The translations under genes and the position numbers were made by a program. The notes under the pieces were generated by a model, which was not told the DNA's origin, did not search any database, and saw only the letters and a list, made by a program, of their open reading frames with translations. A stretch of 64,000 nt of DNA, from positions 558,001 through 622,000 of the forward strand of contig JAFCMP010000246.1 in assembly GCA_017506865.1 (NCBI GenBank), given 5' to 3'. Origin of the DNA: Tribonema minus (taxonomy: Eukaryota > Sar > Xanthophyceae > Tribonematales > Tribonemataceae). Below, one piece after another: positions 7,775-62,539 of this stretch (the first letter of the stretch is position 1; the number at the start of each line of letters is the position of its first letter).

Positions 7775-10700
7775 CTACCAATGCGACATATCGTGGCGTG
7801 GCGTCCACCCCTTGGGGCGGCGCGGGGACCTGCTAGATGCCTGCGGCGGTCGCAAACGCTGTTTTCTGGGCCTCCCCTGCGCCCGCACACCCGCCCCTCC
7901 CCCATCTTTCTGCCCACGGCCCACCCCCACCTCCACGCTGCCGCCAACAGCATCCGCAGCAGCGCTCGGCGGCACCGCCTCGCCTCTGCCACTTGCGTCC
8001 ACGCCAGATGCTACGGCGCCGCCGCCAGCTCTGCCGCCAGGCGCAGACACTACCGAAGCAGGCTTCTTCGAACGACCAGCAGCACGGCCACTGGCAGCAG
8101 CAGGCGCCGCGCCGCTTCGCGCAGCGCTGGCGGCGCCGAAGTTGAGTCGCCTCGGCTGCGCGCCAGGCTGCTGCCGCTCGGCGGAAGACGGCGGCGGCGG
8201 CGGCGCCAGCCTGCAGTTGCTGAGCCTCCGCCGCGCCATGTCTTCCACCTCATCGCGGCTCACTACCGTCGCTCTGCCCGTAGCAGCTGGCACGCCGCCG
8301 CCCGCGCCTGCGCCGCCGCTGCTGCGGACATTTGCACTGCGGCTACGCTGCATGGCGGCGCCGCCGCCGCTGCCGTCGCGTCGCCGCGCGGCGCCCTTGC
8401 CAAAGGCGCTGCTGCTGCCATCGCCAGCGCTATATCGCCGCCCATCACCTCCGTCGCCCGTCCCCTCGCGCGCCGCACCGCCGCCCCCAGCATCGTCGCC
8501 GCCGCCGCCGCGCGTCGGCGGCACCACGCGATACTCGGTGACATGGCTCAGCAGGCGGTAGTCGGGGCCTTCGAGCGCGCGCGCGGCGAGGTGGTGAAGC
8601 TCCTCCACGCGCCGCAGCAGGTGCTTCGCGGGGGAGCAGCGGTGGCAGCGCTGCACGCGGCGGCGGCGGCCGCCGGGCGTGACGTCGTACACGCACCTGC
8701 GCACGGCGCGACAAGGCAGTGCGAGAGAGTGAACCGACGCGGAGGCGGCTGTGCAGCATGTGAGAGGGCTGTGCTAGAGGACAGAGCTGGTCAAGAGCGC
8801 ATGCCACAGCGCACCTCGCGCAGCGTAGAAGCTCTACAGCAGCATGTCTTCAGCGGTCTCGGGTGCCGTCTCGCTCTTCGCAAAGCTGCACCGAAAGCTG
8901 CTGCTCCGCTCACAATGAAGCGAGCCCGTTATCCGACTGCATTTGATGTGCTCAATCCACACTCAAAGCTGCACACTCACTCACCTGCAGTGACCCTGGC
9001 GAGCCCTGCCGGGAACATTGACAGTAGAGATGAGCACTTCCTTCACCGGGGGCGGCGGCGGCGGCGGCGGCGGCGCGCTCGGCCACCGCTGCCACGCACG
9101 CCGCAGGAGCATCCTCTGCAGCGCGCAAATCAGATCGCGGAGCGCTGCTGCATGTGCCGCGTCATCGCGCCACGCGCGCAGGCACTTCCTGAGCAGCGCC
9201 GCCTGTCACGGTTGGGGACGTTCGGTGCACGCCGATCAGCGCACGCGTCGTGCGTAATGCGATGCAATGCTGTTGGATTGTTTACATTTGCTAGCTGCGT
9301 GCCGTCATCAGGTCAGCGTGGGTGTACGAGCATGCAGGCATAGTGGCAGGCTGTATGGTCGGGTCCGCCAGTTGAGGCTTGGGAATGAAAGTCAAACCCT
9401 AACCCTAACCCTAAACCTAACGGAGCCCTGATCCATCGTGACACGCTGCCTGACAGCAGTTGATCAGCGAACACCGCCATCCAATGACAGTTTGCGCCCT
9501 TCTGCCCAGAATAGGGCCGCATCGCCGCCAATGCCCGCATTCGCGCTTATGCAATGCAGGAGCTGTTGCTTAGTAGCGTGTTGCTGTACACCACCGGCGG
9601 TAGACATCGAGTTGCTAGGAGCCAATGTATTGTGGTCTGTCCTCCGGCACTTGCAACCGCCGTGACCGTCAAGCGTGCGGAGGCAATGATCAAGCCTCTG
9701 TCAAGATGCTGCAACAACGCTCACGGAGCTCATCAGAAGAAAACCTCACGGAGCTTCAGCGTAAGCGCTCGTGGTCTTTCTCTTATTAAAACCACAACCA
9801 CACCGACCTTGAAGGCCCTGTCCAGCGCCGTTCCCTGCCATATGTCCTGCAGCCGCAGCTGCATGGCGGTGTCGCGCCAGCGCCTCAGCCACGGCAGCGC
9901 AAGCGCGCGCAGCCACGCGTGCCGCAGCGTGCGCGCTGCGCGGCGCCGGCGGCACCACCGCCGCCACCACCAAAACCTCTGCACAATTACAGCAAATGGC
10001 AAAAATCTTAAATAACAGGAGTTTGGCTGTCAGCAGCATCTTTTGTTGGTGTACGTGTGATTATCAGCACGCGTGCCGCAGCGTGCGCGCTGCGCGGCGC
10101 CGGCGGCACCGCCGCCGCCACCACTGGAATCTCTGCACAATTACAGCAAATGGCCGTTGTCTCATGTGAAAAGAGCTTGGCTCTCAGCAGCAGCAGCAGC
10201 AGCTGTTGTTCGTGTACGTGTGATTGTCAGCACTCATGGAAATGAATCAAAAGATCGTAGAGCTCATATTGCTGAGCCTCGCCCACTGGCGCCATACGCG
10301 CCTGCAGTGTGACGCGCTCCCACAAAATTGTTGAAGTGGTCATGACTGCAGCACCATGCCTTCCACCAGAGGAGCAAGCAAGCCTGCAACATAGCGCCAG
10401 CACGAATGCGAGGTGTTCCAGAGCGACTGCCGCCGAGTGCCACATACATACCGCCCCCTACGCATCTCTTGGTGCGATTCAAAGCGCAGCTCCAGAAGAC
10501 CAAAACCTTGCCAGGCACGTGTGAAACTGCTGACTTCTGCTGCATCGCAAGGCACTCCTGCCAACTCACCGCCCTCAAGGCTGCCAGCCTGCGCACATTC
10601 GCCATCCACCATACGTACTCCCGCCACCGCCGCCACGCGCGCCGCCGCAGCCACCGCTCGCGCTGCTCCGCGGCGCGCAGCGCCAGCGTCCGCTCTCGCC

Positions 10701-12650: not shown

Positions 12651-12654
12651 CACA

Positions 12655-12925
12655 GTGCATGATACACTCTTTACTTGGAGTCTTCAGGGTCGCAGGCAGC
12701 CGCTGCTACGCACAGTGCTCCACACGGCGCATGATACCCTCTTCACTTGAAGTCTTTGACGTTGTAGTGGCCGCTGCTTCACACATTGTTGTACACGGCG
12801 CAGGAGACAGTCTTCACTTGAAGTCTACAGAGCCGCAGTAGCCGCTGCTTCGCACAGTGCTCTACACGGCGCATGCGGCTCTCTTCACTTGAAGTCTTCA
12901 GGTTGAAGTAGCCACTCCGCAGTGC
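12655..12925. repeat. Four degenerate tandem repeats of about 68 bp
   Basis: Each unit contains TTCACTTGAAGTCTT, then a variable part, then GTAGCCGCTGCTTCGCACAG and ACACGGCGCATG (with substitutions). They lie just upstream of a C28 run and the first identified exon of the RBBP9-like gene, probably inside its first intron or its 5' flank. Confidence 0.8.
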
Positions 12926-12932
12926 GGATCGT

Positions 12933-12960
12933 CCCCCCCCCCCCCCCCCCCCCCCCCCCC
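12933..12960 (+). repeat. C28 homopolymer serving as polypyrimidine tract
   Basis: Twenty-eight consecutive cytosines followed by ACCTGCAG and the exon start at 12969. The complementary strand is G28. Confidence 0.9.
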
Positions 12961-12968
12961 ACCTGCAG

Positions 12969-15427
12969 TGCCCGGCAACGGCTGCGTCCCCGTCGCGCGG
13001 TGCAACTGGTACGCGTGGATGGCCAATCAGATTCGAATGCGAGGCCTCGCAGAGACGGTGGAGCTGAGGGACATGCCCGATCCGTACGTGGCGCGAGAGA
13101 GTGCGTGGCTGCCGTTCATCGTCAACGAGATGGGTGCTGGCGAAGACACGTGAGCGCGCTGCTGAGGATGCTCATGGTTCAGTTGACAGTGTTCGATTTT
13201 GCGCTGATAAAGTGGTAGTTGAACTCTGACAGTGTTCAATTTGTGTGCTGATGAAGTTGTAGTTGAGTGCGGCAGATACACGAGCACGCTGCTGAGAATG
13301 CTGAAGGTTCCGCTGACGGTGTTCAAGTTTGTGCGGATGAAAATGAAGGTGGAGGCGGCCTGCCTTTCATCGTCAACGAGCGCAGCGCTAGCGAAGGCCC
13401 TTCAAGCGCTGCTGACAAATTAAAGTGCTGCTGTAAAATATGTTGAAATCGAGCATGGCCTTGCGTTTCAAAGTCAATGAGCTCGTTGACGGCAAGGACA
13501 CGAGGTGCACCGCACGGACGTCTGCTCGCGTATGTAACTGCGCACTCATTGTGTATTGTGCGTACGCATGTGGACAAATCAAGCTCACAACGGCACAAGT
13601 GATGTCCCTGCATGTTCGGTGCAACGTAGGCGCATTGCAAGTCTGCGCGAGGAACGCTCGCCGCATGAATTTCTTCGCCGCTACAGTATGCGGTGCACAC
13701 AGGGGTAGTACCTTCCAGCAGTGCGGCCGCTGCCTTGAGTGCAATGAACGTACTGTAGTGTATGCATGCACATTGATCTATGAATGGTATGACAAACTAC
13801 AAACACTATGCTGTGCCCGTTCTTCTACTTGAGCGCGAACGTACTCTGTTGTATGCACGCACATTGATCTATGAGTACCACAAACTAAAATCACCAGCTG
13901 TGCCGGTTGTTCTACTTCCAAGTACAGGGCGGTCTTTCTACTAGAACAGTCATACTTTTTGAAGTAGATCGAATGCTTGTTTCAAATACAGCCGCTGCTC
14001 ACCTGGGGCATGCTGACTGAGGGTTTGACCGCGTCTTCATACGGTATGTATTTGTACAGGGTGGTGGTGGGACACTCCAGCGGTGCTGTCGCGGCTATGC
14101 GGCTGTGCGAGACACAGAAGCTCGCGGGCGTGCTCCTGGTCAGCGCCTGCCACACAGGTGCGTCACGACTTGAACTTATGACTTGAAAAACTGATGCATG
14201 TGCGAGACGCAGCGGCTCGCGGGCGTGCTCCTGGTCAGCGCCTGCCACACAGGTGCGTCTCCACTTGACCTTGCAACTAGAAAATTATGCCTGTAAGAGA
14301 CGCACAGGCTCGCGGGCGTGCTCCTGGTCAGCGCCCCCCCAGGTGCGTCATGACTTGAACTTATGACTTGAAGTCAGTTATTGAGGCGTAGCTGCGAGGA
14401 CACCAGGAGTTGATGGTGAACCACACGCCAGGGCTTGGTTGCGGTTGGCAGCAGCGGCGCCGTTTTGAAGCTGCACGCTGAACAATATATGCTCCTGTCA
14501 GCGCCTGCCGCACGGGTGCATGACTCGAAGTAATGATATATGCGGAATGGCTTGAGGTTGTGTATGCGGACACACCAGGCTTGTGGTGCCAATTAAGTAC
14601 ATGCAAGCGCTTGAGATGACCCCTCCGAGCTGCATCTTAACAGATTGCCACTGATGGCGCATAAGTCTATACATGCGCACAGAACATTTGACCGATCACG
14701 ATTATTATGATGTCACTCCGCACATGCAATGCTGAGCACCGCCAGCGCCCCTGACATGCAACTTGAGACGACCTATGGACAGTGACTGTCCAAAAAGCTT
14801 CAGCCCGCGTGTCGTGCACAGAGCCCAGCAGTTAAGACAAACACGCCCTGAGGCTCCTGCTCGCAGCATCGAGCCTTGACGGCATTGAATGCCGGCGGCT
14901 CACCTTTCAACTGCAACTGTGAACTGCGCATTTGAAAGCGCCGAGCACTGACGCCCGCCGCCTGCGCGAGCAGCTTTTTGAGGCTTGATGGCACCCATAT
15001 GCCGGGCTCAACTCTGGCGAGTGTTCTGGTGCCCAACAAAATCACGATAAAGAGGATAAAGAGCAGGGAAGAGGCCGTATTCGGGCAGGACACGAATCAG
15101 TGAACTGCAACTGCGAAACTGCGCACTGCACACGCTGAGCACTGACGCCCGCCGCCTGCGCGCGCAGCTTTGAGGCTTGATGGCACCCAAATGCCGGGGG
15201 CTCACACAAGAACTGCCGCATATTGCACACGCTGAGCACTGACGCCGCTGCCTGCGCGCGCGCGCAGACCTCGGCGACGACAACGAGCGCGCGTCGGGCT
15301 ACTACTCACGCCCGTGGCGGTGGGACGCGATCCGCGCCAACGCCGGAGCGCTGCTGCAGCTGCACTCGGCGGACGACCCGCTCATCCCCGTCGCCGAGGC
15401 GCGCCACGTGGCGGCGTCGCTGCGGCT

Positions 15428-15461
<34 letters not shown>

Positions 15462-16942: not shown

Positions 16943-19900
16943 TTAGTCGACGCCCGCCATGTTGACGTCCTTCTCAGACGCCTTCTTGGCGGCGCCGGCC
17001 TTGCTCTTGCGCTGCTTGCGCTCGAGCAGCTCCTTGCGGTCCTTGTCGAGCTTCAGCTTGGTGATGACGACCTTGGAGGGGTGGATGCCGATCTGGACCG
17101 TCGCGCCTGAAAGGGGCAACGCAGGGGGGGGGGGGGGGGGGGGGGGGGGCCGTCACTATTGAAGATGAAGTAATGAGCTTTGAACCAGGGCTTTACAACA
17201 TCTTGGAGGGGCGGATGCTGATCTGGACCATCGCGCCTGGGGGGGAGGGGGGGGGGGGGGGTGTTGGGGCATCACGATTGAACGTGAAGTGAAGATTAGC
17301 GGGACCTCGCAGGCGCTTCCATTGAAGATGCAGCACCAGGCTTGACCAGGACTTTACAGCAGCATACCAACACCAAGGCTGATGTTCAGATCAGATCTTC
17401 AAGCAATCAGCATACCCGTCAGAGTCGCTGATTGTCGTTATTGGAAACTTCAAACCGACACTCTTGAAGTGAATGTAGTTCATCGTTGCTCATCAAAGGT
17501 ACCATGGGCATGGGCGGCCGCGCCTGCTGCACATATGTAGGCAACGTGCAGTAGGCGTGTGGGTGGTGCTGGTCAAGCCAGCAGGGCGCACAGCACGTGC
17601 ATGGCAGATGGCCTCAGTGAGAGGCACTTGGAGCTCTGCGAGCTGTCAGTGTGCCCAGAAATTGATGCATGTAGATGCAAGCTGTCAGCATACCCAGACA
17701 TTACTATCGTTGTAATGCAGTCTCCAAGCGCACGAGGCCAGAGTTGAAGTTCGACATTGAGCTTACGAAGAATCACATGTGCACATGCTCTCCCTTCATC
17801 TTGAGGTCAGTGCGTAGTACACATGCACGTGCTTCACAATGGCACTTAAATGCACTCATTTGACAATGTTGAAGATAGCGTGCATTGACTTCAATTTGTT
17901 GTGACGCTCCAGCAGAACGTCACTTCCTGCGGCCATCCGGTGTCCATTGACTTCATTGTTCCACACCTGCTAATGCCGCCCTCAGCGCACATGTTAGGTG
18001 ACCAGGGACGAGAGGCACTTCAAAAGAGCCTGGCTCCCTTCCACCTTTGTGTTCGTGGGTGATGATTCACTTAGAGATGCTATTTTGGCTAGTTTATTTG
18101 TTCTTTGTGGAATGAAATTTTTTGAATGCCCAGCGACAATCCGACACCCTCGACTGTACTGCTGCGACCCTACTGATATCACCCTCAACGCGACCACCGG
18201 GCGCTTGCGTGAGGTGAGCAGCAACTTTGTTGTGAGGTGTTGTGCCTGGTGGGCGCTGGCACAACCGCCAGCGGTTACAGATGTGTATGTGTAACTGCTG
18301 TGTGGCCAGCAGCAGCAACAAGACCTTGAGGTCTGAGGTCCCTCAACGGCAACTTCAGTTTGTGGCATTGCGGAGCGTTGCCGCGAGTGTGCGCAGCGAG
18401 TGCGCTTGGGCAGGGTCACTGCCAACACCGAATTGGTGAGACCTTTGAGCACGTGACGACACGGCGATTTGCAAGAGTGTTGTTGTCATGGCTAATCCAG
18501 CCCTTACGTTTCCAATTGAGCGCTCCATCGGCACTCTCTGTGGCCAGCAATCACGGGCATTGCACCCTTGAGCTTCAGCATTGCGCTAGGTGCCTACAAT
18601 GGATGTGCGTGGACGATCTGACGCACTGCGCAACGTGCACGCACTGACACCTCATTTCGCCTCAATGTCGGTGTGAAACATGCTGAGCGTTGATGGCTGC
18701 AGAGCTATTTAGAAGCAGCGGCTCTGACCGCTGGGCTCCTTCGTACGGACAAACGCCATACATACACACAGAGCGCGTGTAATCTGCAGCACTTGCACTG
18801 CAGTACGTCAAGCCAAAACCCCTGACGCGCTTGGAATGTGTGATAGTGTCCAGGTTGCGTAAAAACGCAACAGCATGATTCGCCTGTTGAACATGATGCC
18901 AGTGATCTGCTCACTGCGAACGACGCACTTCCCCATCCGCGATACTGCTGATACCACAAAGTTGTGCCCATAAACTCTGTGACGCGGATGCAGGACACCA
19001 CGGGTCATGATATACAATGATCTTAACAGCAAGGTTGCAGCAGTGCTCACCATTGGCCTTCTCGCGCGTGACGCGCTCAATGTGGATCACGTACTTCCTC
19101 CGGTAGCACGCCGTCACCTTGCCCTCGCGGTTCTTGTAGTGCCCCCGCACCACCATCACCTCGTCGTCCTTCCGCACGGGCACCGACCGCACCTGCTCCG
19201 CGGCGGGATGAGCGCGCGAGCAAGGTGAGGGTGGGCAGGTGCTTGCGGACGGATCAGTGCAGTGGCGCAACTGGCGCAGGCAGGTGCTTGTGGGCAGATT
19301 GGCCGAGTCACGTCGACGAAATGGGGGGGTGGGGGGACATGCGGATTGCGCCGTGTGTTATACGCTGTGCCTGAATCGATGCGGTAAGTGGATGGCAGAG
19401 GCATAAAGAGGATGCGCGCACAGCTCTACCCTGTGTGTAGCCCGCTTGAGCCATGGTCCTGGGTCAAAAGAGGTGCAGCGACCTGCCGACGGCCAACAGC
19501 AATCAAACGCTGACAACCATTTTCTGCGCTGCACTGAGCCAAGATAACTGCAAGTGTGTTGGCAGATGCAGGAAACATCCGTCTACCTATTGCGGTCGCT
19601 AGCTGTTGATGCACTAATCCCGGCACTCACGTTGTACTTGGCCTGGAGCTCCTTGGACAGGGAGGCGGACATGATGATCCGCCTCTGGTGGGAGGGCGCC
19701 GTGAAGTGAGCCTTGCGGCTCTTGCGCCGCGAGGACGACACATTGGGGTTGACCTTCACTGTTGGACGCAAGCACAGCAGCGAGCACAAACCGCGCAAAG
19801 TCAGGCCCCAATGACGCCGACCAGCATAGGGGCATTGGATTTACACAGCTTTTCGTACATGAGTATCTGCAGATATTTCATTGCAAAGTCAACAGGACCA

Positions 19901-32517: not shown

Positions 32518-33812
32518 CTACGCGGCGGCGGCGGCGGCGCGTGAGGAGCGCGGGGGTACGGCAGGGTTACAGCTTGTTCCCCGAGCCCCCATCCTTAGTA
32601 GCCTCTGTTGCATAACCCCCCCCATGGGGGCTATGCGAGGCATAAGGACATCAAAATTGGGTGACGGGCGGATGGGATGCCAACCAACAACAGCAGCAGC
32701 GCGCCCCGCTACCAGGGTCCAGGCAACCGAGCGTTGGAGTGTGACATATGGCTGCGCAAAACAGATACGTAAAGCCTCTCTTGCGCAACAGTCGCTGTTG
32801 TACAAAGGGCTTGCGATAGGAAGGACACGCTGCAATGCGGCGATGCGGAAATTGGAGCGTCACCCGTACTGTACCTGCCAATGAAGTTGAAGCTGCCGAT
32901 ACGCTTGCACACGCCCATGATCCTTTTCTCGAGCTGCATCAGACAGAGAATGGCAGTTTGGCGGCAACAGGTGAGGGCACATTTGTGAACCTTCAGTGTA
33001 CCCCACTGGCGCATTGTGAAAGCATCACATGTATGAAGAATGCAAGTCGCTGGCTCACACAACATGCGTGCTGGCAGCAGCGGAGTCACCTCACTCAGTG
33101 CAGAATGGCGTACTTGGTTTGTACTGTCGTGACCCTGTGCGAATGAAACCTCTCAGTGATTGGCATATCTGCAGTGCGCACAAAGTGTATGCATGTATGC
33201 GCACAAATATATAGCGTCTTCTGAGTATGTATACTCGAGCAGTGCCAGCCTTGCGCCAGCATGTGGCATCAGCGTTGCACCATCATCCATTTTGTTGTAA
33301 AAATCAATGCTCGATTGTATGTTGAGTTCCCATTCTGATGCATGTGTGGTGAGGCTGAGGATAATGAGGTCTGCGGAGGGATTTGCAATGAAATAATACC
33401 CAACACGGCTCAACACAGCTTGGCACCATCAGAAGAGTCACAGTTGAGGGGTAGGGGCAAGGTCACACCTCCACTAGGTTCATACACTTGTTGTATAACA
33501 GAGGCAGCCTGCGTGATTGTTGCATCGGTTGTTAGTTAGAAATGGCACTGCTGAAGTTCACGCAATAGCAAAGTGGTGCACATGATAACGATGGCACAGG
33601 AGACAGCTGCTGAGACTGCAATAGATGAAACATCAACTGGCCTGCTCGACGTCAACACCCAGCATGCGCTGGTACAACAGCCACCACTGCATAAAACTGC
33701 TACGCATCACGACAATGGCACACTCGGAACGAGCTTGCTGTTAAAACTTCAACCAATGCAACATCAACTGCCTGGCTGCTGAAAACTTCAACTGATGCAA
33801 CGTCATGCAACG
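32518..33812. other. Spacer; probable upstream exons of the disordered-protein gene not resolved
   Basis: No clear exon boundaries found. At 33629-33690 there is a decayed copy of the end of the neighbouring RRM gene's last exon. Confidence 0.4.
33629..33690 (-). pseudogene. Copy of the RRM gene's last-exon 3' end
   Basis: Plus-strand CATCAACTGGCCTGCTCGACG, CCAGCATGCGCTGGTACAAC and AGCCACCACTGCAT match 33811-33870 (CGTCAACTGGCCTGCTCG, CCAGTACGCGCAGGTACGAC, AGCTGCCGCCGCAT) about 180 bases away. The copy lies beyond the gene's own stop, so here duplication hit a 3' flank rather than an intron. Confidence 0.75.
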
Positions 33813-36800
33813 TCAACTGGCCTGCTCGCTGTCGACGTCCAGTACGCGCAGGTACGACAGCTGCCGCCGCATCGCCTCCTCGGGTTCTATCTTTGCCGCC
33901 GAGGAAATGCTGTACAGGCCGCCGTGACCTCCAAGCGACACTTGCACGCCCTGCGTGCATGTAGGATTAGGGTTAGAGTGAGGGCTTGGGGTAAGGGTCA
34001 TGCGAGCGTGACACGCGTCACTCTCTGAAGGACAAGCGGAGTGAATACTAGCAGGAGCAGCAGTGCTCAGGACGCCAGCAGCAGCAACACCAAAAGCAGC
34101 AGCGACAGCGGAAGCGGAGTAGCAGCGGCGCGAACAGCAGCAGTAGCAGCAGTCACCAACAAGCTGACAAGGTGGAGTATTGGTTGAAACAGGCTGTCTG
34201 AACACAACGCATAGCCCCCGTGCCTGTGGCGAATGAGGTGGTCGTACCAAAGGGAGTGTTCATGCAGTACCATCAGCAGGGAATGCCATCTGTTACTTCA
34301 GAAGCGTGCGCAACACCCTGGCTTCTGCGCTCATTGCTCTTGTCATGTACTTCGAAGTATAGACTATGTACTTCAAGAAGTATGATACTGCAAGTAAAAG
34401 TATATGTTTCGCAAGTACAGGTAGGTTACATGCACGGGTAGGTTAAATGCAGTCAAGAAAACTGACTTTGACGTACATGCCTTCGTTACAAGGGAGAAAA
34501 GATTAAGCCCTCAAATAGCCAGTGTGCGGATACATTATTGTCATTGATGCTGCAGCCTGAGCGCTGTTGCACAACTCGTAATGCACATAACGACCCCCTG
34601 CACACCGTTTTGATTTCCGACCAAAACAATCAACCTCTCACTGTGCAGCCAATCCGGTCCCGAACACACCTTGGACACCATTTGCACAGGCTTTCGAGCC
34701 GAGAGCTGCTGCTCCTCCTGCTTGGCGCCAAGCCGCTGAACCACCGACACCATGCCCGCTTTGACATCCTCCGCCAACGGCGGCGGCACTTGCGACGGCG
34801 GCGGCGGCGGCGGTGGAGGGGGGCCGTGCACCTGCAGCGGCGCCGCGCAGAGCCAGTGTTGAAGAGATAATGCAGTGTGAGGATGGGCATACTGGACTAG
34901 ATGAAGAGCGTTGCCAGAAGGAGGTTAAACTGTTGTGTGACCTACATATGTGCAGGTGAACCGTACGCTCAATATACAATGTGGGAGAGAGACGCGCAGT
35001 CGCGAATTCTTCCCCCATAGGCAACACTTCATTTTTTGAAGCATGCAAGTATTAGCTCGAGCGAAAAGATCACCGGACACAGCGTGCCGTGACTACGCCA
35101 GTTGCCAATGAAAGGACATCCATCGCATGAAGGCTGAGCCATGCGCACAAGAGCACGACAGCTGCGCGAGAACCGCAGGCCCTGCACTGCACACAACCCA
35201 CGCACACTTGCAACTGCCATACGCAAACTCACATTGGCTAAGTTGAACCCCACGGGGCCGCCCTCCGCGCTATCGAGCGCCCCCCTGAAGCCCCCCCTTC
35301 CCCCCTGTCAGCGCTCAACCGGTCCCTGCTCCCCAGCGCGCCGCCCCCCTGCACCCTCTCCCCCCTGCCCTCCCTGCCGCCGCTCTGCGGTGTAGGCGAG
35401 CGCTGCTGCTGCTCTCCCAGGTGCCGCCGCGGCGGCGCATCGCCGAGGCGCGGCGTGCTGTCCCTGCCGCCCGCGCGCGCCGCGCTGCCGCCGCCGCCGC
35501 CGCCGTCGACGCCGTAGCCGCCGCCGCCGCCGCCGTCGACGCCGTAGCCGCCGCCGCCGCCGCCGTCGTGGCCTCGCGGCGACATTTCCTCATGCTGCGG
35601 TGGCGCGCCGAGGCGCAGCCCGAGCGCGCCTGGGGGCGAGCGCAGCTGCGGCGGCGGCGGCGGCGCGCGCGCGCCGGGCGCCTCCAGCGGCGGCGGCGGC
35701 CCCCTGTGGCGCTCGTCGATGAGCTCCGTCGCCCCCGCCGCTGCCCCTGCGGAGCTGCCGCTGCTCGGCTGGCTGCGCGGCGCGCGGCTGAAGGGCAGAA
35801 ACTGCGCGCGCACGGGGCAGCCGCCGAGCGCGACGTAGATGCGGCCGCTGCCGTTGACGCGGTTGATGGCGTGCGGGTGCTGGTACTCGCGCAGCAGGTC
35901 CACGAGCGCGCGCGCCGCCTCCGCCTCGTCCTTGAACGAGACGGAGCAGAGCGTGTACGTGGAGCTGTGCTTGAACTGCGCCGTGTCGGCCACGGCGGCG
36001 CCGAAGCGCTCCGTGATCGCCTGCGGCGGCGGCGGCGGAAAACAGCAGCAGCGCTCATCAGGGCACGCAGGCTGCAGGATGCATGTGCGCAGTTGCTGCT
36101 GTCGCTGTCTAAGGTATCAACTAGTTTCACATTTCCATTTACATACTTTGAAGTGTTAGCGCATCTTTACAATGCAGTTGAAACCAATGGAGGCAGTGCT
36201 TCAGGTGGCAGTGCCATTCTGCTGCCGACTGGTGCAGCTGCTGCTCGTCCCGTTGCCGTGCTGGTCATACTTCTTTCAGTCTTGCTGGTTTCGCAGGGAC
36301 TCTGGCCTTGCCAAGTACAGGTCTGCGACATCGGCAAAGCTTAGGCATGGCTGACCGGCATCACTGAACAGCACACCTTGTACTGTATGGACGCCTTCAA
36401 TTTTCACAAGCGCTTCGTTCCTGAATCATTATATATACGGCGCCCCCACACCCCCGCGACCAGCGCCGCGCCCATGCGCTTCGCACCCTTGCCTCGCCGC
36501 TGCGGCGCCACACGCCACTCCCCATGATCAAGTACGCATGCATAATCGCCACCAGCACGCCAAGCGCGCAGGCGCGCCGCGCGCTGCCAACTTCAACTTC
36601 AACTGTCGCGCATGGCGATCCCGGCGATAACTGACCTCGTGCATGGTGGCGCGCGTGTGGCGCACGGCGCCGTCGCTGCCGAGCCCCAGCACCGGCGACG
36701 GTCCGTAGTTGCTCACGTACACCACGTTGACGAGGCGCCGTGTCATCGCAAAGATCGCGCCGTCCATCTCCGTGGAGGCGCGCTCCGCCTGCTGCACGCT

Positions 36801-45706: not shown

Positions 45707-47716
45707 ATGAAGGCCGCTACTATCATCGTCGCCGTCGCTGCGGTCGTGGGCTTCGCTTCCGCTGCACCAGACACCCGCTGTCCCACCACCGCCACGCCAG
45801 AGGACTTCCCCAAGTGTGTCACCTACTACTTTGAGGGGCAACAACAGTGAGTGTTAGTCACTGATGGCATATGCCATCGAGCAGCGCGTCTGGATCCAGG
45901 GTTGGTCACCAGCACGGTAGTACATGTAGCTCTACAGTAGCTGCTTCTGTATGACCAAGCTTCACTTACTAGTAGTCTGGCAGGCTATCGCAGTGACAGT
46001 CACTGTGGTCACTCTGATGCACTAAGCAAGGGCACAACGCATGCCTCAATGACATGCCCGGCCATGTTGCTGCAGTAACTGCGTGCCAGTGTCTAGTTTG
46101 GAAATTGCTGAATCTGATTCAGTCTTCAGTGGGATTCACATGCCACTGAGTCCTCGCCATAATCTGCCACACAGTGACAGGCTGAGCGCTGCCACATTCA
46201 CTGGTACATGTGACTTCAGTTGCAACGTCAGCGACTGGAACGGTTACCATTCTCCGCGACAGCCGTTGCGACAGCTGTTGCGACTTTCATAGTGTTGCTT
46301 TCTTGTCGCTTCTTCACAGTTACTGTATTTGCTCCTGTTCTCGCTACCGCCTCTGCAGGTGCATCACGAGCTTTGATGGTTGCGAGCCCGTCGCCGCGTG
46401 CGCCAACGTCATGTGGGACGGCGCTCAAGCTCTGTGCTTCGACGGCTGTGCCAGCGCCGACTACGACAACGGAGTGCCCGTCTGCCTGGCCACTGACGCG
46501 GAGGGCGCCTGCGTCGTTGTCTGGGTAAGTGCGCGCTGCCACATTCACTGGTACATGTGACTTCAGTTGCAACGTCAGCGACTGGAACGGTTACCATTCT
46601 CCGCGACAGCCGTTGCGACAGCTGTTGCGACTTTCATAGTGTTGCTTTCTTGTCGCTTCTTCACAGTTACTGTATTTGCTCCTGTTCTCGCTACCGCCTC
46701 TGCAGGTGCATCACGAGCTTTGATGGTTGCGAGCCCGTCGCCGCGTGCGCCAACGTCATGTGGGACGGCGCTCAAGCTCTGTGCTTCGACGGCTGTGCCA
46801 GCGCCGACTACGACAACGGAGTGCCCGTCTGCCTGGCCACTGACGCGGAGGGCGCCTGCGTCGTTGTCTGGGTAAGTGCCGCATCGAGCTTTTCTGTGTG
46901 ACAGTTAACTGTGTGTCAATAACCGCATGACTGAGTACTGTACTGCAACAACATGACATTGTGATGAACCATCATGGCAGTCACTGGCACTGAGCGTAAC
47001 AGTGACCGTCACAGCGACTGCTGCAGTCAACGAGCATTAGCTGCTGTGCATTGCAAGCAGCTGTTGTGTCCATGGCACTGCAACTGTTGCACCATCATCC
47101 AATACATTAGCTGTGACTGTCACAGTCACTGTGTAGTAAGGGTACTGAACAATAATTGATGAGGTGCAGCATCAGATACTGACTGAGCGCTCAGCATGCA
47201 GCGCGCTGCTGCTGTGCCCCCCACCCCCCCCCCCCCCAACAGCGACTCACGTTCCCACACAATCACCTCCCTCCCACCAGCCACTGGCATGCGCGATGCC
47301 TGAGCAAATACGCGCCCCCCCCCTTCCCCCCCCCCCCCCCCCCGCAGAACGGCGGCGTCCCCAGCTGCCTGACGGACCACTGCAACGCGCGCGTCGAGGG
47401 CTGCGACAGCATCGGCTGGTGCCACGAGGCGGGGCAGCCGTCCGGCGAGGGCGTCTTCTGCTTCGACACATGCGCGCCGCGTGGCATCAACTGGTCCTCC
47501 GACGGCCTGCCGCAGTGCGCCAACGGCACGACGCCGTGCCCCGCGGGGCGCAAGCCGCACTGCTACGAGGCGGGCGGCACGTACGCGCCGACCATGGCGC
47601 CGAGCGCTGCGCCGACGGCGGGCCCCACGGCCGCCGCCGCCGCTGTCGCCGCTGGCGCCGCGACGCGCAACCTGCGCGCCACCGTCCGCGCGCTGGGCGG
47701 CCAGTTCTTTGAGTGA
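45707..47716 (+). CDS. Secreted cysteine-rich protein, paralogue 2
   Basis: Exons 45707-45846, 46359-46524 (or its identical copy 46706-46871) and 47348-47716, total 224 residues with one copy. It starts MKAATIIVAVAAVVGFASAA, a signal peptide, followed by CPTTATPEDFPKCVTYYFEG. The middle exon has CITSFDGCEPVAACANVMWD and LCFDGCASADYDNGVPVC, paralleling paralogue 1 (CFDSCA..YDGERPVC). The last has PSCLTDHCNARVEGCDSIGW and VFCFDTCAPRGIN, then a TMAPSAAPTAGPTAA stalk and a basic end (RNLRATVRAL). Intron phases (2, 0) equal those of paralogue 1. The middle exon is 166 nt, so only one copy can be included per transcript (see findings). The final acceptor follows long C runs. Extracellular or surface location is inferred; molecular role unknown. 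Confidence 0.88.
46186..46532 (+). repeat. 347-bp exon-containing tandem repeat, unit 1
   Basis: Head-to-tail with 46533-46879 and, as far as I can compare by eye, identical. Boundaries are sharp: base 46185 (A) differs from 46532 (C), and 46533 (G) differs from 46880 (C). The unit carries 172 bases of intron, the 166-nt exon and the first bases of the next intron with its GTAAGT donor. Confidence 0.95.
46533..46879 (+). repeat. 347-bp exon-containing tandem repeat, unit 2
   Basis: Second copy of the unit, containing the duplicate exon 46706-46871 with intact acceptor (CTCTGCAG) and donor (GTAAGTGC). A collapsed or expanded assembly cannot be excluded without reads. Confidence 0.95.
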
Positions 47717-50700
47717 GGGCCGCGGCGGCGTCGACCAGTGGTGTGAGCGCGGCGGGCGGGCGCGCGTGGCGCCTTGTGCGCTGCGCGCGCGCGCGCGCGT
47801 GCGCATCGCTGTACGATAGAGGTGAGCGATCGTTGTGCGCCGCTGCCGATGAGTCAACTTGCTTGCCACTCTGATGCAGTGCTGCAACAGCGAGATGGTG
47901 GACTGTTTGGACACTGTTAGTTTGTTCTTCAGTGTACAAGAACTGTTCGTGCGTTGTGATGCTGGTGCAGATGTGCGTGCGTCATGTCCGCTTGTGATGG
48001 CATGCTGTTTCCAATCAGCGCATCTTCACCTTGCTAGTATGTGTAGTATAATGTTGTGTGCGCAGTTCAGTGTCTGCGCATGCGCACACGCATGGGTGAC
48101 GCCACAGCATGTGACATTCTGTGTGCACTGGCAGAAGCCCTCGTACCACCTGTGCTGTATACTTTAGTATTCATGAACTGTTATTGCGTTGTTATGCTCT
48201 TGCAGATGTGCATGCCTCATCTTCCGCCTCCTGGCATGCTATTTCGGATCAGCGCACATTGCTAACGTGTGCAGTCTAGCGGTGTGTGCGTAGTTCTGCA
48301 ATAGTGTCTGCGCAGCAGCCCTTGCACTACAAGTAGTACTTGCGCTGTACCATTACCAAGTCGTTGAGTGTCAGAGCGTGCAAGTTCAACTGTTTGCCTC
48401 TGAAACTGACCGCCCACATTCCACCGCTCTCTGCCTCTGCCGCCCCCTCCGTGCAGACAAATAGGCGACGAGACCTTCCAGAACACGAGCTTCCCGTACA
48501 AGTTCATGTTGCGTGAGAACTTCAGTGAATGCGTTGGTTTTGCGTCCCGTGCCAGGCAGCGTGCGCGCCTTTGCGGCGTAAACTCTGTTTAAAGGAGGTT
48601 GAGCGCTGCCACCTGTGGGTGTCAGCAGACCAGTGCGCCAAGACTCCCAAGTCCGAGTCCTTCTTTTTCAGTCCCCTTACACCCATGGTACACCTTCACT
48701 GAGTGTACCGGCTGTAGCAACCCTGGTACCGCGTGCGAGTAGTCAAGCAGGCGGCCCCCGCGCATGTTGCGTTGAGAGTTTCCTTTTTTTGTAGCGATCC
48801 CCCAGGATGATGACGTCCCGTAACTGTTCGTTGCCAACACAGTCATTGATTGTCTACGGACACCCCTCCATGTGTGCAATATAATGTTATCACCCCCTTT
48901 ATCAAACCCCCAAATGCTTTTTTGAGTTTCTACCTCCGTGCATTTTTTGCACCTGCACCTCTGCGTTGCTGAATGCCTGTTCAGTTGCCAAGTGAGTTGA
49001 CAGCGTCTTTCGTTGAGCTTGCAGCTGATGTTCATCACTCTTTGGCACATGAATTGCCCTACTATTAGTAGTACTCGGTAGTTTCAGAGGATGCTCATAT
49101 GCCGCAGCTTGGAAGCTGAACTTGATCGACCCCCTTCACTTGCTGATTCATGAATGCCTTTGATGCTCGCTCATGAGTCCCAGGCTGGTGTAGTTCTCAC
49201 CCTATTGAATTACTAATCACTTGCCAAGTTGATGCTCACTGGCAGTTGGCGGATGCCGCATGGCGGTGCTTGTTTTGACTGACTGCTCATATTGACTAGC
49301 ATGCTGCAGCTCGTGATCCCTTGATGGGGGGCGCACCTGCTGCGGCGTGTCAATGACTGACATGTGTCACTTCTTGTCCTCGTAACGACAGGTCCATGAG
49401 GGATCTTGAGACATGGTGATGTACACCACACCACATGTGAACTTGAAGTGCAACTGAATGTCATCGCCTTCTACGTCAAAACTCGAGCGTTTTCGTGGCA
49501 CAGTGGAACGAGCGCGAATGCACTCTAGCTTTTCCATTGCGGCAAGCTATCTGCGCTGGCATCCTGAAGAGCAGCTGATGCGCAGTTTTTATGGACATGA
49601 TTGGTGACTGACGATTGTTTGCACCACTTCTTGGTCATAATCGCAATTACCTCCAGCTTGCCATGATGCGCAATGATGCAGAACCATGACATGTCCATTG
49701 TCTGCAGCAAAAATGTCAGTTTGCCTCAAGCATGTCATGGTTTGAAGTGATGCAGCACACAGCGCGTGCCCTGCGTAGTGAGCATTGCAGGCTTGCTGAC
49801 CATGGATCAATTGAACATAGAATGTCGTGCTTGAACTACCTCCATGTGAACGAACGAGCAGGCATGCACGCCACGTTTTGGTCATCACGATTCGGCTGGG
49901 CCTCCAAAAACAGACACACATGCGGCACACATGGCATGCGGACATGGTAATGGTAACATGAGATGGAATGCTAGTGTTATTTCACCGCATCTTTTCTGCA
50001 GAACCGGGCCGCGATCGACGCCATGACACCTCCGTGCATGCGCTGTCCCCGCGTCAGCAACATGCCTTGAAGTTTCTGTGGGCTGCTGAGCACTGCTTGA
50101 CAGTAATCACCCCGCGCTACGATTCGGCTGGGCCTCCGAAAACAGACACACATGCGGCACACATGGCATGCGGACATGGTAATGGTAACATGAGATGGAA
50201 TGCTAGTGTTATTTCACCGCATCTTTTCTGCAGAACCGGGCCGCGATCGACGCCATGACACCTCCGTGCATGCGCTGTCCCCGCGCCAGCAACATGCCTT
50301 GAAGTTTCTGTGGGCTGCTGAGCACTGCTTGACAGTAATCACCCCGCGCTGCCTGCTGCTGATGCGGCTCGTGAGCGCAGGCGGTGCGTGAGGGCCCTCA
50401 TGCAGCAGGTCAAGAAAGTGCTTGAGAAGAGGCGGTAGCAGGACCACTTGCACTGCTGCAAAGTCTTGGGTTACGGTCGAAGCTGCTGACACAGGGTCAC
50501 ATGTAGTCTACGACCGATGCGTGCCTCACGACGGCAGCCACGGCATGGCCGGTTTTTATGAGGTGTTGGTCAAGCTTTCCGGTCCACTGTGCGGGTGACG
50601 CAGAGCGCTGATTCGCAAGCGGTTGCGGCAGACCAGTGGCGCGTTCCAGATGCTGTGCGCAGCCGGGGGGGAAGCAAAAAGCGCCATAAAACGCGTTAGG

Positions 50701-57180: not shown

Positions 57181-57184
57181 GCTA

Positions 57185-57950: not shown

Positions 57951-59751
57951 TCGTCACACAGGTGCACGTGCAAGTGTTCAAGTCCGCACAGATTAACTTG
58001 AACTATGGGTTGTGACTCTCCACTTGATGATTGAAAATTTGAGAAGGTCTGAGGTACCATAGGTTTGCAACATGGTGGGCGCCACCACGCACGCCCTCAT
58101 GGGCATCGCGACCCTAGTCTACTTCATGTATGCCTGTCAGGCTTGGATACTCAATGGTGTAGATACACCTGTACCTCATGATCGCAGCAAGAGCAAACTT
58201 GTGCAGCGCGGTGCGTCCGACAGATGGGCTCATCTGCATCCTCGTCGCGCCAGCAGCGGCTTCGCCAGCTTCAATTCTGCGACCGCAGCTGACATTACAG
58301 GTGTGTGTCGCCTGTTGAAGTTCAATCAAGACCAAAGTACCACCAACACGAGACTAAGTGCTTCGGTACAGAGCATGCAGCAGTACTGGTATTGATGAAG
58401 CGTTCAACAGTGCAAGCTAATCAGGTCTGAGATCTGGGGGTCGTGTCCTTCTCGGCCTGTCAAGCAAGACTGCATCAGATTACTGACACAGCACTGACAT
58501 GAGCATGGAGGCCTTGCCTTTCACCACTGCGAGCCTGCGGTGCAGTACCGTTGGATGGCGGCATCAGTTGCGCGCTGCTGCTGAAAATGCACATTTCAAA
58601 CCGTGTTAAGGGGTTTGCAGGCTCCGCTGGACATATTCTCAACAAAAGCCGCTGGATTGTCAGCGCCTTGTCGCACGCCACCAACTTGAAGGCCCAAATC
58701 ACCGCATCCTCTGCTCAAAAAGCAGTCAGGATGAAGCATGCGTGAGTTGAGCCCGCCAGTCCATCATGCAGGCATGCTGCGCGCAGCCTTGTGCATCTCA
58801 AAGCGCACAGGCCCCTGTCAACAGGCAACGTGCCTGAATAGCGTTTGGTAACCTTGCATGGAGCTGCTGGGTAATGGAAGGTCATGAGGCCATAGACACG
58901 CAGTGATTATGCATGCAAGCAGTGAGCGGTCTCGTCACCCCTACATAATGCTACTGCGAACCCCTAACCTCAACTTCAACCCAGCGTGGCAGAGCACAAG
59001 CTAGTGTCAGACATGTCAGGCCTGCAGGCATGGCACTGCACGCCGTATCCTGTTGTGGAGCTGAATGTAAGCTCCGCCGCCACGTGCTGGTAGCTGTTGG
59101 AGATATTGAGCTAATGGACACACAGTTTGCCGTTGCGCATGCCAGGACCATTCTGTTCAGGCACAATGACAATCGGTGTCAACTGCATTGCGCAGCGAGG
59201 AGGGGAAGCGGTGCGCGTGTAGGGGATGCGTGCAGGCTGTGGTGCAGCCGCCTCCGCGCCCTGACAGTGCCGCTGTGATTGTCACACTGGGGCATGGAAA
59301 AGCGCGCTCGAGTCTACTTCGCCCGGCTCGTGAAGTGCAACAGGATTCCTTTAACTGACCAGGGCCCGCATGCCGGAGCTTGGTTGAACTTACATCTGCA
59401 GGGTTGGTAGGTACCGGGAGTGACGGCTTCCGCCCTCCCCCTCCACAGCTCATACAATAGTTCACGTTTTCATTCTCGAGTGTGGTGCAAGCGTGATTGC
59501 CGGCATCATCTGCAAAATGTACTTTACTGTATTCTAGAACTTGATATACGTGGGGCAACTTGTGCGTTGGCGCCATCTCTGCATCAGCTCTCACCTGGCA
59601 GCATCATGAAGCCACGATGTTTCAGGATGGCGAGACCGTGCTCACAGCTTCGCAAAGACCTCACTGTCACAGACCCTATGCGTGCCACTCTCCCCGCCAC
59701 CGACGTTCTTCTTGTTGCACATCCATCCCACCACAACACCCTTGTTTACAG
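57951..59751. other. Spacer with two weak candidate exons
   Basis: 58072-58131 reads MVGATTHALMGIATLVYF from an ATG up to a GTATGC donor, a hydrophobic start that could be a signal anchor. 58551-58745 reads ISCALLLKMHISNRVKGFAG onward. Neither has a partner exon or family match. Confidence 0.3.
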
Positions 59752-62539
59752 GCGACGCATCATTCTTGCCGCCGGTGTACAATGGCCCCATTCAATCCCT
59801 GGACAAGATGGAGGCTGGAACAGAGATTGCCAGCTTGGGTCTCGCGCTCATGGTCGGGGAAAGTGTGGTGGCGCCGGGCTCGCTGGGGCTGTTCTGCAAG
59901 GTGCTGGATGAAGGCGACTCCGTCAGCCTGCCCGCGTTCACTCCAATGGCAGGTGGGTCTAACGACGCAGCTATCATGCGCCTTTGGCAGATAGATGTAG
60001 CATTGCGGCTGATATGCAAGGTGCTGGGCGAAGGCGACTCTGTCAGCCTGCCTGGGTTTCCTTTCAAGAGCATGCGGGTAAGCCGTTGAAAGTTGTAAAC
60101 TTCAAGTAGTAGCAGCAGTAGAAGGATTTGGCACCGAACTGAAATCACGCGGAAGGAAACTAGTTTTCAAGTTTCAGTGCTGTAGGATAAGTGGATCGAA
60201 ATGTCATGGGCTAGGGGTAGTGGACGATTTGTGGCGCCTCCTTGCCATTGTTGAGGTATGACACATGAACGCCATCTTGAAGTTTGGTGCAATTAGACTC
60301 AACAGGGTGAATGATGGCCGCGTGCATTCGCTGCAGTCGCATGCGTTCGCTGTGACTGTTGTGCAACGCGATGAGAGCGGGAGTGACTCCATCAGTGCGC
60401 CGCACCATCCCTGCATTCCTCAGCGCGCCTGCCACGCAGCGCGCTCCGTGGCGCGCAACTTCGGAGCTCTGTCAGGCCATAGTACATGCCTGTACTGTCC
60501 CGTGATCCCCGCAAATGCAGGGGCGTCGCATCGATTATGGACAGCTGTACCTCACCGCGCAATGCCTGTTGTTCTCTGCGATATGCTGTCGCGTGCGCGG
60601 GCACCGCCTCTCAGGCTACGTGCGCGGCACGTGCCGCCACGACGAGGCCAGCAAGAGCGACAGTGGCCCACCTCTAATTTTGTTTGTACGGGTGCAGAGA
60701 CACTGCAGCTGTCGAAATCAGTGGTGGCAAACGCAGTGAACTACGTGTTACTGCCAGAAGGCTTCACACGCGGCATGTTCCAGCACGTAGAAGAGGGTCA
60801 GGGCACAGTACATCCCTGCACTGCATGCGGACTGTCAATGTACATGCCTGACCATCACAGATGCAAAAGAACTTCGGTCATATCGCACCGGTCGTTCCTA
60901 TAGCCATTGACGCTTCTGCTGCTGCATACGTGCGCGCCGCCGTCGCCAAGCTATGCGCATTCCAATGACGTTTCTCTGCGGCAGGGAACTAATTAGTTAC
61001 CTCACTTCATGCACATACTGGAACCTGATCACGAAAGCAGAGGTCGCCTCGAGCACGTGCGCTGCGTATCTCTTGCAACCCTCAGTGCCGCTACTATACT
61101 TATCATATCCGCGTGCGCGCGCCGCTGCCGGGCTATGCGCGTGGCACCTTTTGCAAGTGCTTTTGCCAGGGCTTCAGCGGAAAGACGGCAAGTTGATGAC
61201 GTAACCTTTGCCCCTTTCACGATGCAGACACACTGCAGCGGTCAAGGCCAGCTGCGCCGTGCGCAGTCAGCTGCGTATTTGCCGGCGCAACAGTGCTCCG
61301 CGCTTGCCGCCGCGTATGCGCGCCGCCCCCACGCCACGCGCACAGCGCCTCTTGACTCGGCTGGAGCGCAGTACACGCCTGTACTGCGTCCTGACCACGC
61401 ATGTACTGTGCACCGACCACGGCTGCAGAGACATCACGAAGTGAATCGTAATGTAACGTACGCTGCCAAGCGCCAGGGCACTGCATCGCCCTGCTGCGCG
61501 TGTGCAGATGGCTCGTGAGAAGGCACGGCTACTTCACTGCGCCACCCCTGCTGCTGCTGCGTGCGTGCGCGGTCTCATCAGGTTACGCGCGCGGCACGTT
61601 CCACCGCGAGGACACCGGCGACAAGACGGTTGCCTACGTGCTCAACAGCCCCGACACGGCCGTCTTCTACAACCAGCAGCTCATGCCGCTGCGCGAGGCG
61701 GTCGCCGCGGTGAGCGACGCCGCCGTCGACGCCAGCGACAGCGTCGCCGGGCACACGCTGGTGAGCCACGGGTAGGGGTAGGATTAGGCCTGGAGTTAGG
61801 TGTCAGGGTAAGGGTTAGGTCATTACTATAGGATAAGGTGATTACTATAGGATCAAGTATTCACTATAGGGTTCGGTTCGGGTTAGGGTTGGGGTTGGGG
61901 TGAGAATTCGGGTTACGATTAGGGTTAGGCTTAGGGTTAGGGTTTGGATTGGGGTGTAGCGTTAGCACGCTGTGCTGATTGTGGACAGTACGGAGCGCCT
62001 CTGTCATTTGTTGAGGGTTGGTGTTGAGGTTAGGGCTAGGGTTATCTCAGGAATAAGACTAGGGTTGGAGTAGGGTTAGAGCACGTACCCAGCGGACACT
62101 CTGGTTGCCTCGACATCCTGCACGGTTGAGAGAGAAGTGAAGTAATGGCAGCGCCTGCCATCATGCACAAGATCGTCAATGGTCGGTGCTGGCAACATCA
62201 GTATCTATATATTGACTGCACAGTATTACGCCCTTGTGAGTTGTGTCAGCGCTCAGGCGACACGTCCCCGCGCGCTTCAAGCCGATTTCCCTGCTGCTGC
62301 CAGAGCAGCGCGTGGCTTGGTGGTGGTGCGAGCGCAGTGTCAGTGCTCAGCCACCCATTCCTGTCGGTTGGCACGCCTGCGGAGGCAGCTTAACACATGC
62401 CGTCAATGCGAGTGGCATTATGTCGAGTCGTGCACACGCGGGTTGCAAGGGCGCAATACTGACAAGGAGCGGCCGAGTTCTTCCGCAATGAGTACAACAT
62501 AGCCAGGAACTAGAGAAGGGGGGCAACGCTTACATCAAG
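59752..62539 (+). CDS. Unrecognised conserved-looking protein (partial)
   Basis: Exons 59752-59952, 61582-61760 and probably 62507-62539 or slightly longer join in phase. Exon A: GDASFLPPVYNGPIQSLDKM, GTEIASLGLALMVGESVV, LGLFCKVLDEGDSVSLPAFT. Exon B: GYARGTFHREDTGDKTVAYV, LNSPDTAVFYNQQLMPLREA. Exon C: ELEKGGNAYIK, perhaps reading on to VCEIDGDDAGGHADIG before a GTAGGG donor. Amino-acid use, splice signals and phases are those of a real gene, but I do not recognise the family. No signal peptide is visible because the first exon is missing upstream. The intron between A and B contains one copy of the exon A tail and three copies of the exon B head; the intron after B begins with a telomere-like array. 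Confidence 0.65.
60010..60075 (+). pseudogene. Copy of exon A tail in the 59.7-kb gene
   Basis: CTGATATGCAAGGTGCTGGG through GAAGGCGACTCTGTCAGCCT repeats the exon A tail at 59890-59930 and ends at a new donor (ATGCGG|GTAAGC). The frame is still open (ICKVLGEGDSVSLPGFPFKS), so use of the decoy donor could extend the protein. Confidence 0.85.
60430..61170 (+). pseudogene. Three decayed copies of exon B head with acceptor
   Basis: GGCTACGTGCGCGGCACGTG (60616), GGCTTCACACGCGGCATGTT (60761) and GGGCTATGCGCGTGGCACCT (61130) resemble the true exon start at 61581, GGTTACGCGCGCGGCACGTT. All four encode G(Y/F)xRG(T/M). Short upstream motifs (GTACATGCCTG, GTACACGCCTGTACTG) recur too, so units of roughly 150-400 bp were duplicated. 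Confidence 0.8.
61771..62080 (+). repeat. Degenerate telomere-like array in an intron
   Basis: Some two dozen variants of GGGTTA/GGGTTAG/TAGGGT starting ten bases after the donor at 61761, including perfect runs such as TTAGGGTTAGGGTTTGG near 61936, interrupted by ATTACTATAGGAT repeats (61826-61876) and unrelated bases. Confidence 0.85.

What the first reader, a model, noticed from the sequence alone, without database searches (positions are those of the whole stretch)
9800..61770. Recurrent local duplication of exon edges and splice sites across unrelated genes
In at least seven genes (RBBP9-like, RPL26, Sfi1-like, both ends of the 59.7-kb gene, RRM gene, secreted paralogue 2, perhaps the HAD phosphatase) the block spanning an exon boundary, including donor or acceptor and often the pyrimidine tract, is repeated one to three times next door, with decay from 100 % identity to faint traces. 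Copies keep GT or AG dinucleotides. This suggests an ongoing duplication process focused on, or preferentially retained at, splice sites, which lengthens introns and seeds decoy sites and new exons. I know of tandem exon duplication and of intron gain by segmental duplication, but not of a genome where most introns show graded edge copies; whether this is new is inference.
Basis: partly seen in the sequence, partly recalled or inferred. Interest (0 to 1): 0.88.

Follow-up and report, generated by a model that had tools for sequence, protein, structure and literature searches.

The report
Introns filled with exon-edge copies
In this yellow-green alga, over half of the introns examined carry decaying tandem copies of the edge of the exon next door, more often at exon edges than an even duplication process would leave, so introns look partly built by repeated local copying of exon borders.

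Summary
The window is from Tribonema minus. The pattern holds and reaches beyond the window, though several window examples are only partial. In 36 stretches chosen by protein family (264.5 kb), local self-matches were 344 direct, 0 inverted. In 43 of 74 modelled introns at least one exon edge has a copy in its own intron above the 99th percentile of other-intron controls. Copies lie on the intron side. The exon is the constrained source; copies carry frame-breaking indels, though some coding-like bias remains. Copies share few derived changes and diverge with distance, so each seems to descend from the exon edge itself. Clusters spanning a junction outnumber purely intronic ones 44 to 12; fourteen even-duplication simulations gave ratios of 0.36-1.06 against 3.67. 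So a focus on exon edges is supported; special retention of GT/AG is not; new exons are not shown; 14 of 31 loci lack such clusters. Mechanism inferred: recurrent break-repair tandem duplication. Unexplained: the exon-derived part of a unit looks younger than its intron part. New variant of a known kind.

The parts
9914..10070 (-). Sfi1-like gene: acceptor with intron side and exon start (functional copy; AG at 9980-9979)
   Evidence: 81% to 10068-10233, period 154
10068..10233 (-). tandem copy of that acceptor edge in the intron (AG at 10134-10133)
14909..15006 (+). RBBP9-like gene: acceptor-side block, copy 1 (AG ends 14973)
   Evidence: 88% to 15103-15198
15103..15198 (+). RBBP9-like gene: acceptor-side block, copy 2 (AG ends 15167)
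15224..15261 (+). RBBP9-like gene: intron side of the putative functional acceptor (AG ends 15267)
   Evidence: 95% to 15127-15165
17072..17171 (-). RPL26: acceptor, C-tract and start of the last exon recognised (exon starts 17106)
   Evidence: 78% to 17202-17290, period 130
17202..17290 (-). RPL26: tandem copy of that acceptor edge in the intron (copy exon start 17236)
33805..33872 (-). RRM gene: end of an exon; donor position uncertain
   Evidence: 78% to 33625-33692
33625..33692 (-). RRM gene: copy downstream
46183..46532 (+). secreted paralogue 2: apparently a whole exon with both splice sites, first unit
   Evidence: 99.7%, period 347
46530..46879 (+). secreted paralogue 2: second unit
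47927..48080 (+). secreted paralogue 2: acceptor-like block (TGCAG|ATGTGC)
   Evidence: 73% to 48162-48314
48162..48314 (+). secreted paralogue 2: second acceptor-like block
59884..59938 (+). 59.7-kb gene: exon block near its donor; similarity stops before the donor
   Evidence: 85% to 60004-60058
60004..60058 (+). 59.7-kb gene: copy downstream, followed by a donor-like GTAAGC

Best explanation
Tribonema minus introns gain length through recurrent, small, direct tandem duplications that preferentially span an exon-intron border (minimum period per cluster mostly about 100-165 bp; about 50 nt of exon, the rest intron). The extra copy comes to lie in the intron, next to the exon. The exon-proximal splice site stays in use and purifying selection keeps the exon unchanged, so the exon edge acts as a fixed source while the copies decay, largely without coding constraint. 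New events at the same edge push older copies outward. SHOWN here: direct orientation, position, direction of copying, frame-breaking indels in copies, near-absence of shared derived changes at codon positions 1 and 2, trend of divergence with distance, excess at junctions over the even models tried. INFERRED: that the events are break-repair duplications (two nearby nicks or a break with overhangs, fill-in synthesis, end joining) and that exon borders are weak points, perhaps through transcription, splicing or nucleosome placement.
For: Direct 344, inverted 0 matches at 45 bits or more. 41 of 148 junctions have a copy at score 44 or more, 77 copies in all. In one search donor-junction copies are only downstream and acceptor-junction copies only upstream. 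In arrays of two or more copies, changes unique to the exon fall at codon positions 1/2/3 as 1/0/18; 20 of 22 indels in copies break the frame; copy-copy divergence at positions 1 and 2 (about 0.12) is twice parent-copy divergence (about 0.06). In 12 arrays with three or more copies, derived changes at positions 1+2 are private in 82 cases and shared by several but not all copies in 3; the nearest copy is less diverged than the farthest in 15 of 20 arrays, p=0.007. Spanning:inside 44:12, bootstrap CI of the ratio 1.77-7.71, stable from 42 to 100 bits; simulated 0.36-1.06 in 14 settings. Exon part is not evenly spread over its possible range (n=34, p=4e-5). Small tandem duplications by fill-in at breaks with 3' overhangs are shown in cultured cells (PMC8355091; abstract, outline and Introduction seen).
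Against: In a unit the exon-derived part looks younger than the intron-derived part: copies with exon part at least 95% identical have intron part at or below 80% in 17 of 23, against 9-10% in neutral simulations; only simulations in which intron-derived sequence evolves about three times faster come near. Coding-like bias remains: position 3 to positions 1+2 divergence in parent-copy pairs is 3.46, CI 2.53-4.58, where 2 is the simple neutral limit; it is 3.34 in 57 frame-intact and 2.28 in 20 frame-broken copies. At position 3, 9 derived changes are shared by several copies and 61 are private. Copies of one edge often share the same exon breakpoint, which needs reused break sites or in-register exchange. 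At the loosest setting a circular-shift control is exceeded only modestly (donors 16 of 74 against 10.5, acceptors 18 against 10.4), though clearly at 80% identity (12 and 12 against about 4) and, at 90%, for donors alone (5 and 1 against 1.0). 14 of 31 loci lack junction-spanning clusters. Few pairs are young enough to read breakpoints, and stop-codon edges as a non-splice control are inconclusive: 1 of 8 above about 25.
Confidence: 0.5

Rival explanations
1. Even tandem duplication over the gene plus survivorship: duplications inside exons are purged, and edge copies stay visible longer because one partner, the exon, does not change.
For: Intron 60-mers next to splice sites have copies about as often as one-sided intron interior (11% and 10% against 9% and 13%). 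Coverage at the loosest setting is flat across introns (0.25, 0.27, 0.24). The exon is indeed the constrained partner.
Against: Simulations with a constrained exon, six and eight, varying rate, indels, intron mutation 1-8x and homology-driven re-duplication, gave spanning/inside 0.36-1.06, and none gave both counts; observed 3.67, CI 1.77-7.71. Two further sets put junction 60-mers with copies at 8-18% with intron interior at 16-27%, where 28% and 31% were observed with interior at 18%.
Confidence: 0.17
2. Exon-anchored concerted evolution: old in-register arrays whose exon-derived blocks are repeatedly overwritten from the exon (ectopic conversion, perhaps templated by spliced RNA or cDNA) while the intron parts drift.
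For: Exon part far more similar than the intron part of the same unit; sharp drop within a few nt of the junction; shared exon breakpoints among copies; few shared derived changes.
Against: Ordinary conversion tracts should spill into the intron part and leave a gradient; the profile beyond the consensus is roughly flat. It does not explain where arrays are founded.
Confidence: 0.2
3. Copies are kept because they do something (decoy or backup splice sites, poison or alternative exons).
For: Nearly half of the copies keep a strong splice-site score (20 of 42 donors, 16 of 35 acceptors); divergence at codon positions 1 and 2 is lower than simple neutrality predicts, more so in frame-intact copies.
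Against: 20 of 22 indels break the frame; positions 1 and 2 change about equally on copy lineages (56 and 51); GT/AG are kept no better than the exon block; the deposited CCT-theta protein agrees with a model that holds none of the copies.
Confidence: 0.1
4. Assembly or gene-model artefact.
For: Only one gene model (L016) was checked against a complete deposited protein; deposited kinesin P0001 differs from my L028 model at one junction.
Against: Copies cover a broad range of divergence and behave as decaying copies of a constrained exon; the L016 model matches the deposited protein at 100% over 497 aa; strict models (54 introns) give 36 to 10.
Confidence: 0.03

Closest known systems
Tandem genomic duplication crossing an intron-exon boundary (potato RdRp intron gain, PMC4974935; abstract read)
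   Same: A tandem duplication that spans an intron-exon border and carries the 3' splice site, tract and exon start.
   Different: One event in one gene that made a new intron; here 41 of 148 junctions have copies, donors as well as acceptors, up to six per edge, inside existing introns, without a new intron shown.
Intron gain by duplication of an AGGT-bearing exon segment (review PMC3443670, passages; Drosophila PMC2891723, abstract)
   Same: Local tandem duplication supplying splice signals.
   Different: There the duplicated piece is exonic and becomes a new intron; here the unit already contains exon plus intron and the copy falls into an existing intron.
Small tandem duplications by Pol alpha-primase fill-in at breaks (PMC8355091; abstract, outline and Introduction seen)
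   Same: Short, direct, tandem duplication.
   Different: Nothing on exon borders in the parts I saw; enzymes not testable here.
Introners (PMC9860276; start of abstract in a listing and one passage)
   Same: Recurrent sequence gain tied to introns.
   Different: Introners are dispersed elements that create introns; here each copy resembles the exon next to it.
Tandem exon duplication (recalled, no paper read)
   Same: Exon sequence repeated in the neighbouring intron.
   Different: Mostly 20-110 nt of one exon edge, not whole exons; one apparent whole-exon case at 46183-46879.

Membership tests
Tandem genomic duplication (general) | copies direct, nearby, tandem or near-tandem | tested here: met
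   344 direct, 0 inverted at 45 bits or more within 1.5 kb; minimum period per cluster 62-371, median 127, 143 clusters
AGGT-type intron gain by tandem duplication | duplicated segment is exonic and its GT and AG bound a new intron | tested here: not met
   many units hold exon plus recognisably homologous intron part; nearest copies lie a median 154 nt from their own junction inside an existing intron (n=41)
Introners | same element dispersed in many genes | tested here: not met
   28 of 74 donor and 28 of 74 acceptor edges match their own intron above the 99th percentile of matches to length-matched other introns
Introners | terminal repeats or target-site duplication | not tested
   -
Tandem exon duplication | whole exon duplicated with both splice sites | tested here: not met
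   exon part of the nearest copies: median 53 nt, 5-95% 21-109 (n=41); one apparent exception at 46183-46879
Minisatellite growing by exchange among copies | copies share derived changes | tested here: not met
   12 arrays: positions 1+2, 82 private and 3 shared by several but not all copies; position 3, 61 private, 9 shared by several, 8 in all copies
Break-repair (fill-in/end-joining) tandem duplication | little or no homology at breakpoints | tested here: inconclusive
   aligned length minus period -9, -2, +5 and 0 in the four best-preserved pairs of the loci; +3 and 0 in two near-identical window pairs
Break-repair (fill-in/end-joining) tandem duplication | dependence on repair enzymes | not testable with these tools
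   -

The most novel reading that the evidence does not exclude
A DNA-level process coupled to exon borders (through splicing, transcription or border chromatin) repeatedly makes copies of exon edges, and sometimes refreshes the exon-derived part alone, so that introns are a fossil record of their own exon's past; the signal stops at the splice site because the template or the break is set by it.
Probability: 0.35. Interest if true: 0.9.

Novelty: new variant of a known kind. Interest (0 to 1): 0.72.

Why it matters
It would be a source of intron lengthening that can be read event by event, and a natural supply of decoy splice sites derived from real ones. That makes two questions directly testable: how introns grow, and how the spliceosome picks the exon-proximal site among near-identical neighbours. 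If the focus is mutational, it links exon borders to DNA breakage.

Tried and rejected
Blind Pfam scans of the three + strand frames of window 12000-27000 and 49000-64000 gave one hit just under its cut-off (COPI_assoc); ten candidate ORFs gave none. A homology search with a window ORF gave nothing at E<=0.001. Rfam: no match at gathering scores in the window or in L009, L016, L033.

Coding constraint on copies was considered because parent-copy dN/dS is 0.21. I set it aside as the main account because indels break the frame, positions 1 and 2 change about equally on copy lineages and the copy-copy position ratio falls to 1.66, but a bias remains and is told under evidence against. CpG context does not remove the position-3 excess (ratio 2.49 at CpG, 2.96 elsewhere). 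Arrays growing copy-from-copy were set aside. An ACTTCAA-type motif is denser beside breakpoints (6.5 per kb in the 77 flanks against 2.3 per kb in introns), but copies of one array are not independent and this was left. Correlation with GC: none.

Selections and drops: of 295 family rows, 155 lay in the 36 stretches used; two short extension stretches, L012 (one CCT row) and L020, were fetched but not used; kinesin stretches were picked for holding several matches; HSP70 loci could not be fetched. Ten rows were taken out as presumed edge copies before modelling; 74 of 90 modelled introns passed score>2 and mismatch<=5; low-complexity 60-mers were dropped as given; the evenness test used 34 of 41 nearest copies (one left out of the typed list, six over 200 nt).

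Full report
IDENTITY. The window is G000:C246:558001-622000. A kinesin exon about 22 kb beyond its end matches a deposited 'kinesin family-like protein, partial [Tribonema minus]' at 100%, whose contig has the length of C246, and a CCT gene on C135 gives a deposited T. minus chaperonin at 100%. T. minus is a yellow-green alga (Xanthophyceae, stramenopiles; from general knowledge, not looked up).

WINDOW. Self-alignment gives 26 local direct pairs at E<=1e-4. Sfi1-like and RPL26 are clean exon-edge cases; the others are partial, different or not confirmed.

SAMPLE. I used 36 of the 38, with 155 rows. Exon ends were set by profile position, phase and self-trained splice matrices: 90 introns, 74 confident. 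For L016 the spliced product equals the deposited protein over all 497 aa modelled.

PREVALENCE. Direct to inverted matches are 344 to 0 at 45 bits, 413 to 4 at 36 bits. Of 60-mers, 28% at donor junctions and 31% at acceptor junctions have a same-strand copy within 1 kb, against 18% in intron interior, 12% in exon core, 5% in the 5' flank and 10% in the 3' flank; inverted copies 0-0.5% at the same score. Donor copies are downstream and acceptor copies upstream without exception there. Against other introns of equal length, 43 of 74 introns carry an edge copy, 13 at both ends where 10.6 is expected by independence.

DIRECTION AND FATE. In arrays with two or more copies, changes seen only in the exon are at codon positions 1/2/3 as 1/0/18, while copy-lineage changes are 56/51/99. 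Of 22 indels in 69 copies, 20 break the frame; 17 copies have one. So the exon is the constrained source. A coding-like bias remains in parent-copy pairs (position 3 to 1+2: 3.46, CI 2.53-4.58; 3.34 in frame-intact, 2.28 in frame-broken copies). GT or AG is kept in 64 of 77 copies, as expected from about 0.91 identity at each of two bases, and the positional profile puts GT/AG at the level of the exon block; six intron bases were part of the search piece, which favours them a little.

HISTORY. Nearer copies are more similar (51 of 68 untied pairs, not independent; nearest against farthest 0.070 and 0.114, 15 of 20 arrays, p=0.007). In 12 arrays with three or more copies, derived changes at positions 1+2 are private in 82 cases and shared by several copies in 3; at position 3, 61, 9, and 8 in all copies. 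Serial copying from the exon edge fits; growth by exchange among copies does not. Copies of one edge often share their exon breakpoint.

FOCUS. Among the 74 introns, 44 clusters span a junction and 12 are wholly intronic (2 unassigned). The ratio 3.67 holds from 42 to 100 bits (3.7-6.0) and in strict models (36 to 10); the bootstrap interval over 31 loci is 1.77-7.71. Even-duplication simulations with a constrained exon, balancing deletions and the observed periods gave 0.46-0.72 and 0.36-1.06 when intron mutation was raised up to 8-fold or homology-driven re-duplication was added. Of 16 well-preserved full-unit matches, 7 overlap a family-matched exon, 1 is inside a modelled intron and 8 could not be classed. 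Weaker evidence: a circular-shift control is exceeded modestly at the loosest setting (16 and 18 of 74 against about 10.5) and strongly at 80% identity (12 and 12 against about 4), and base coverage is flat across introns at the loosest setting. My reading is that arrays anchored at exons run deep into introns; I did not measure that share.

SHAPE. The minimum period per cluster has median 127 bp (IQR 104-163; 143 clusters); nearest edge copies lie a median 154 nt away, with a median 53 nt of exon (IQR 40-63; n=41), not evenly spread over what is possible (34 copies, p=4e-5).

UNEXPLAINED. Within a unit the exon-derived part is much more alike than the intron-derived part: with exon part at 0.95 or more, intron part averages 0.75 (23 copies), where neutral simulations give 0.92. 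The profile drops at the splice consensus and is roughly flat beyond. Either intron sequence changes about three times faster, or exon-derived blocks are refreshed from the exon. I could not decide.

HETEROGENEITY AND LIMITS. Junctions with copies cluster in some genes (8 of 12 in L016, 0 of 10 in L014; p=0.0018); 14 of 31 loci have no junction-spanning cluster. Stop-codon edges as a control gave 1 of 8, inconclusive.

LITERATURE. In ten searches I saw, among the listed titles and starts of abstracts, no report of graded exon-edge copies across most introns of a genome; this covers only those listings of an open-licence library. The nearest single case is the potato RdRp gene (PMC4974935, abstract). 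The T. minus genome paper, looked up by a recalled DOI, was not held.

VERDICT. A real and unusual pattern. The focus on exon edges stands against the models tried; the mechanism is inferred.

Noticed in passing
36 loci among L009-L046 (264.5 kb); in the window near 9394, 16210, 27329, 27449, 33966, 58961 and 61810-62079: Telomere-like TTAGGG pieces are common: 121 places in the 36 loci, 59 of them in 60 kb of modelled introns and none in the family-matched exons; in introns they lean to the 5' half (p=2e-4) and are 39 sense to 20 antisense. Possibly scars of break repair or G-rich splicing signals.
   Followed up: partly
window 4861-4990 and 5155-5284: An exon-like 130-bp block is repeated in inverted orientation at 96%.
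   Followed up: no
window 5899-6805: A short repeat family, direct and inverted copies at 82-89%.
   Followed up: no
window 49887-50350: A 232-bp tandem duplication at 99.1% with no extra homology at its ends: apparently a very recent event.
   Followed up: no
window 57183-57457 and 57686-57961: A block that is also self-complementary recurs at 83% 503 bp away; looks like a foldback element.
   Followed up: no
introns of the 36 loci: An ACTTCAA/TTGAAGT-type motif is over-represented in introns and denser next to copy breakpoints (6.5 against 2.3 per kb).
   Followed up: partly
L028 2321-2888: The deposited kinesin P0001 reads VRVTSD where my splice model gives TLSQGGS, which is closer to the Phaeothamnion protein P0003; the deposited splice site may be wrong.
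   Followed up: partly
L016 against L014: Edge copies are strongly uneven among genes (8 of 12 junctions against 0 of 10), not related to GC, weakly related to intron length.
   Followed up: partly
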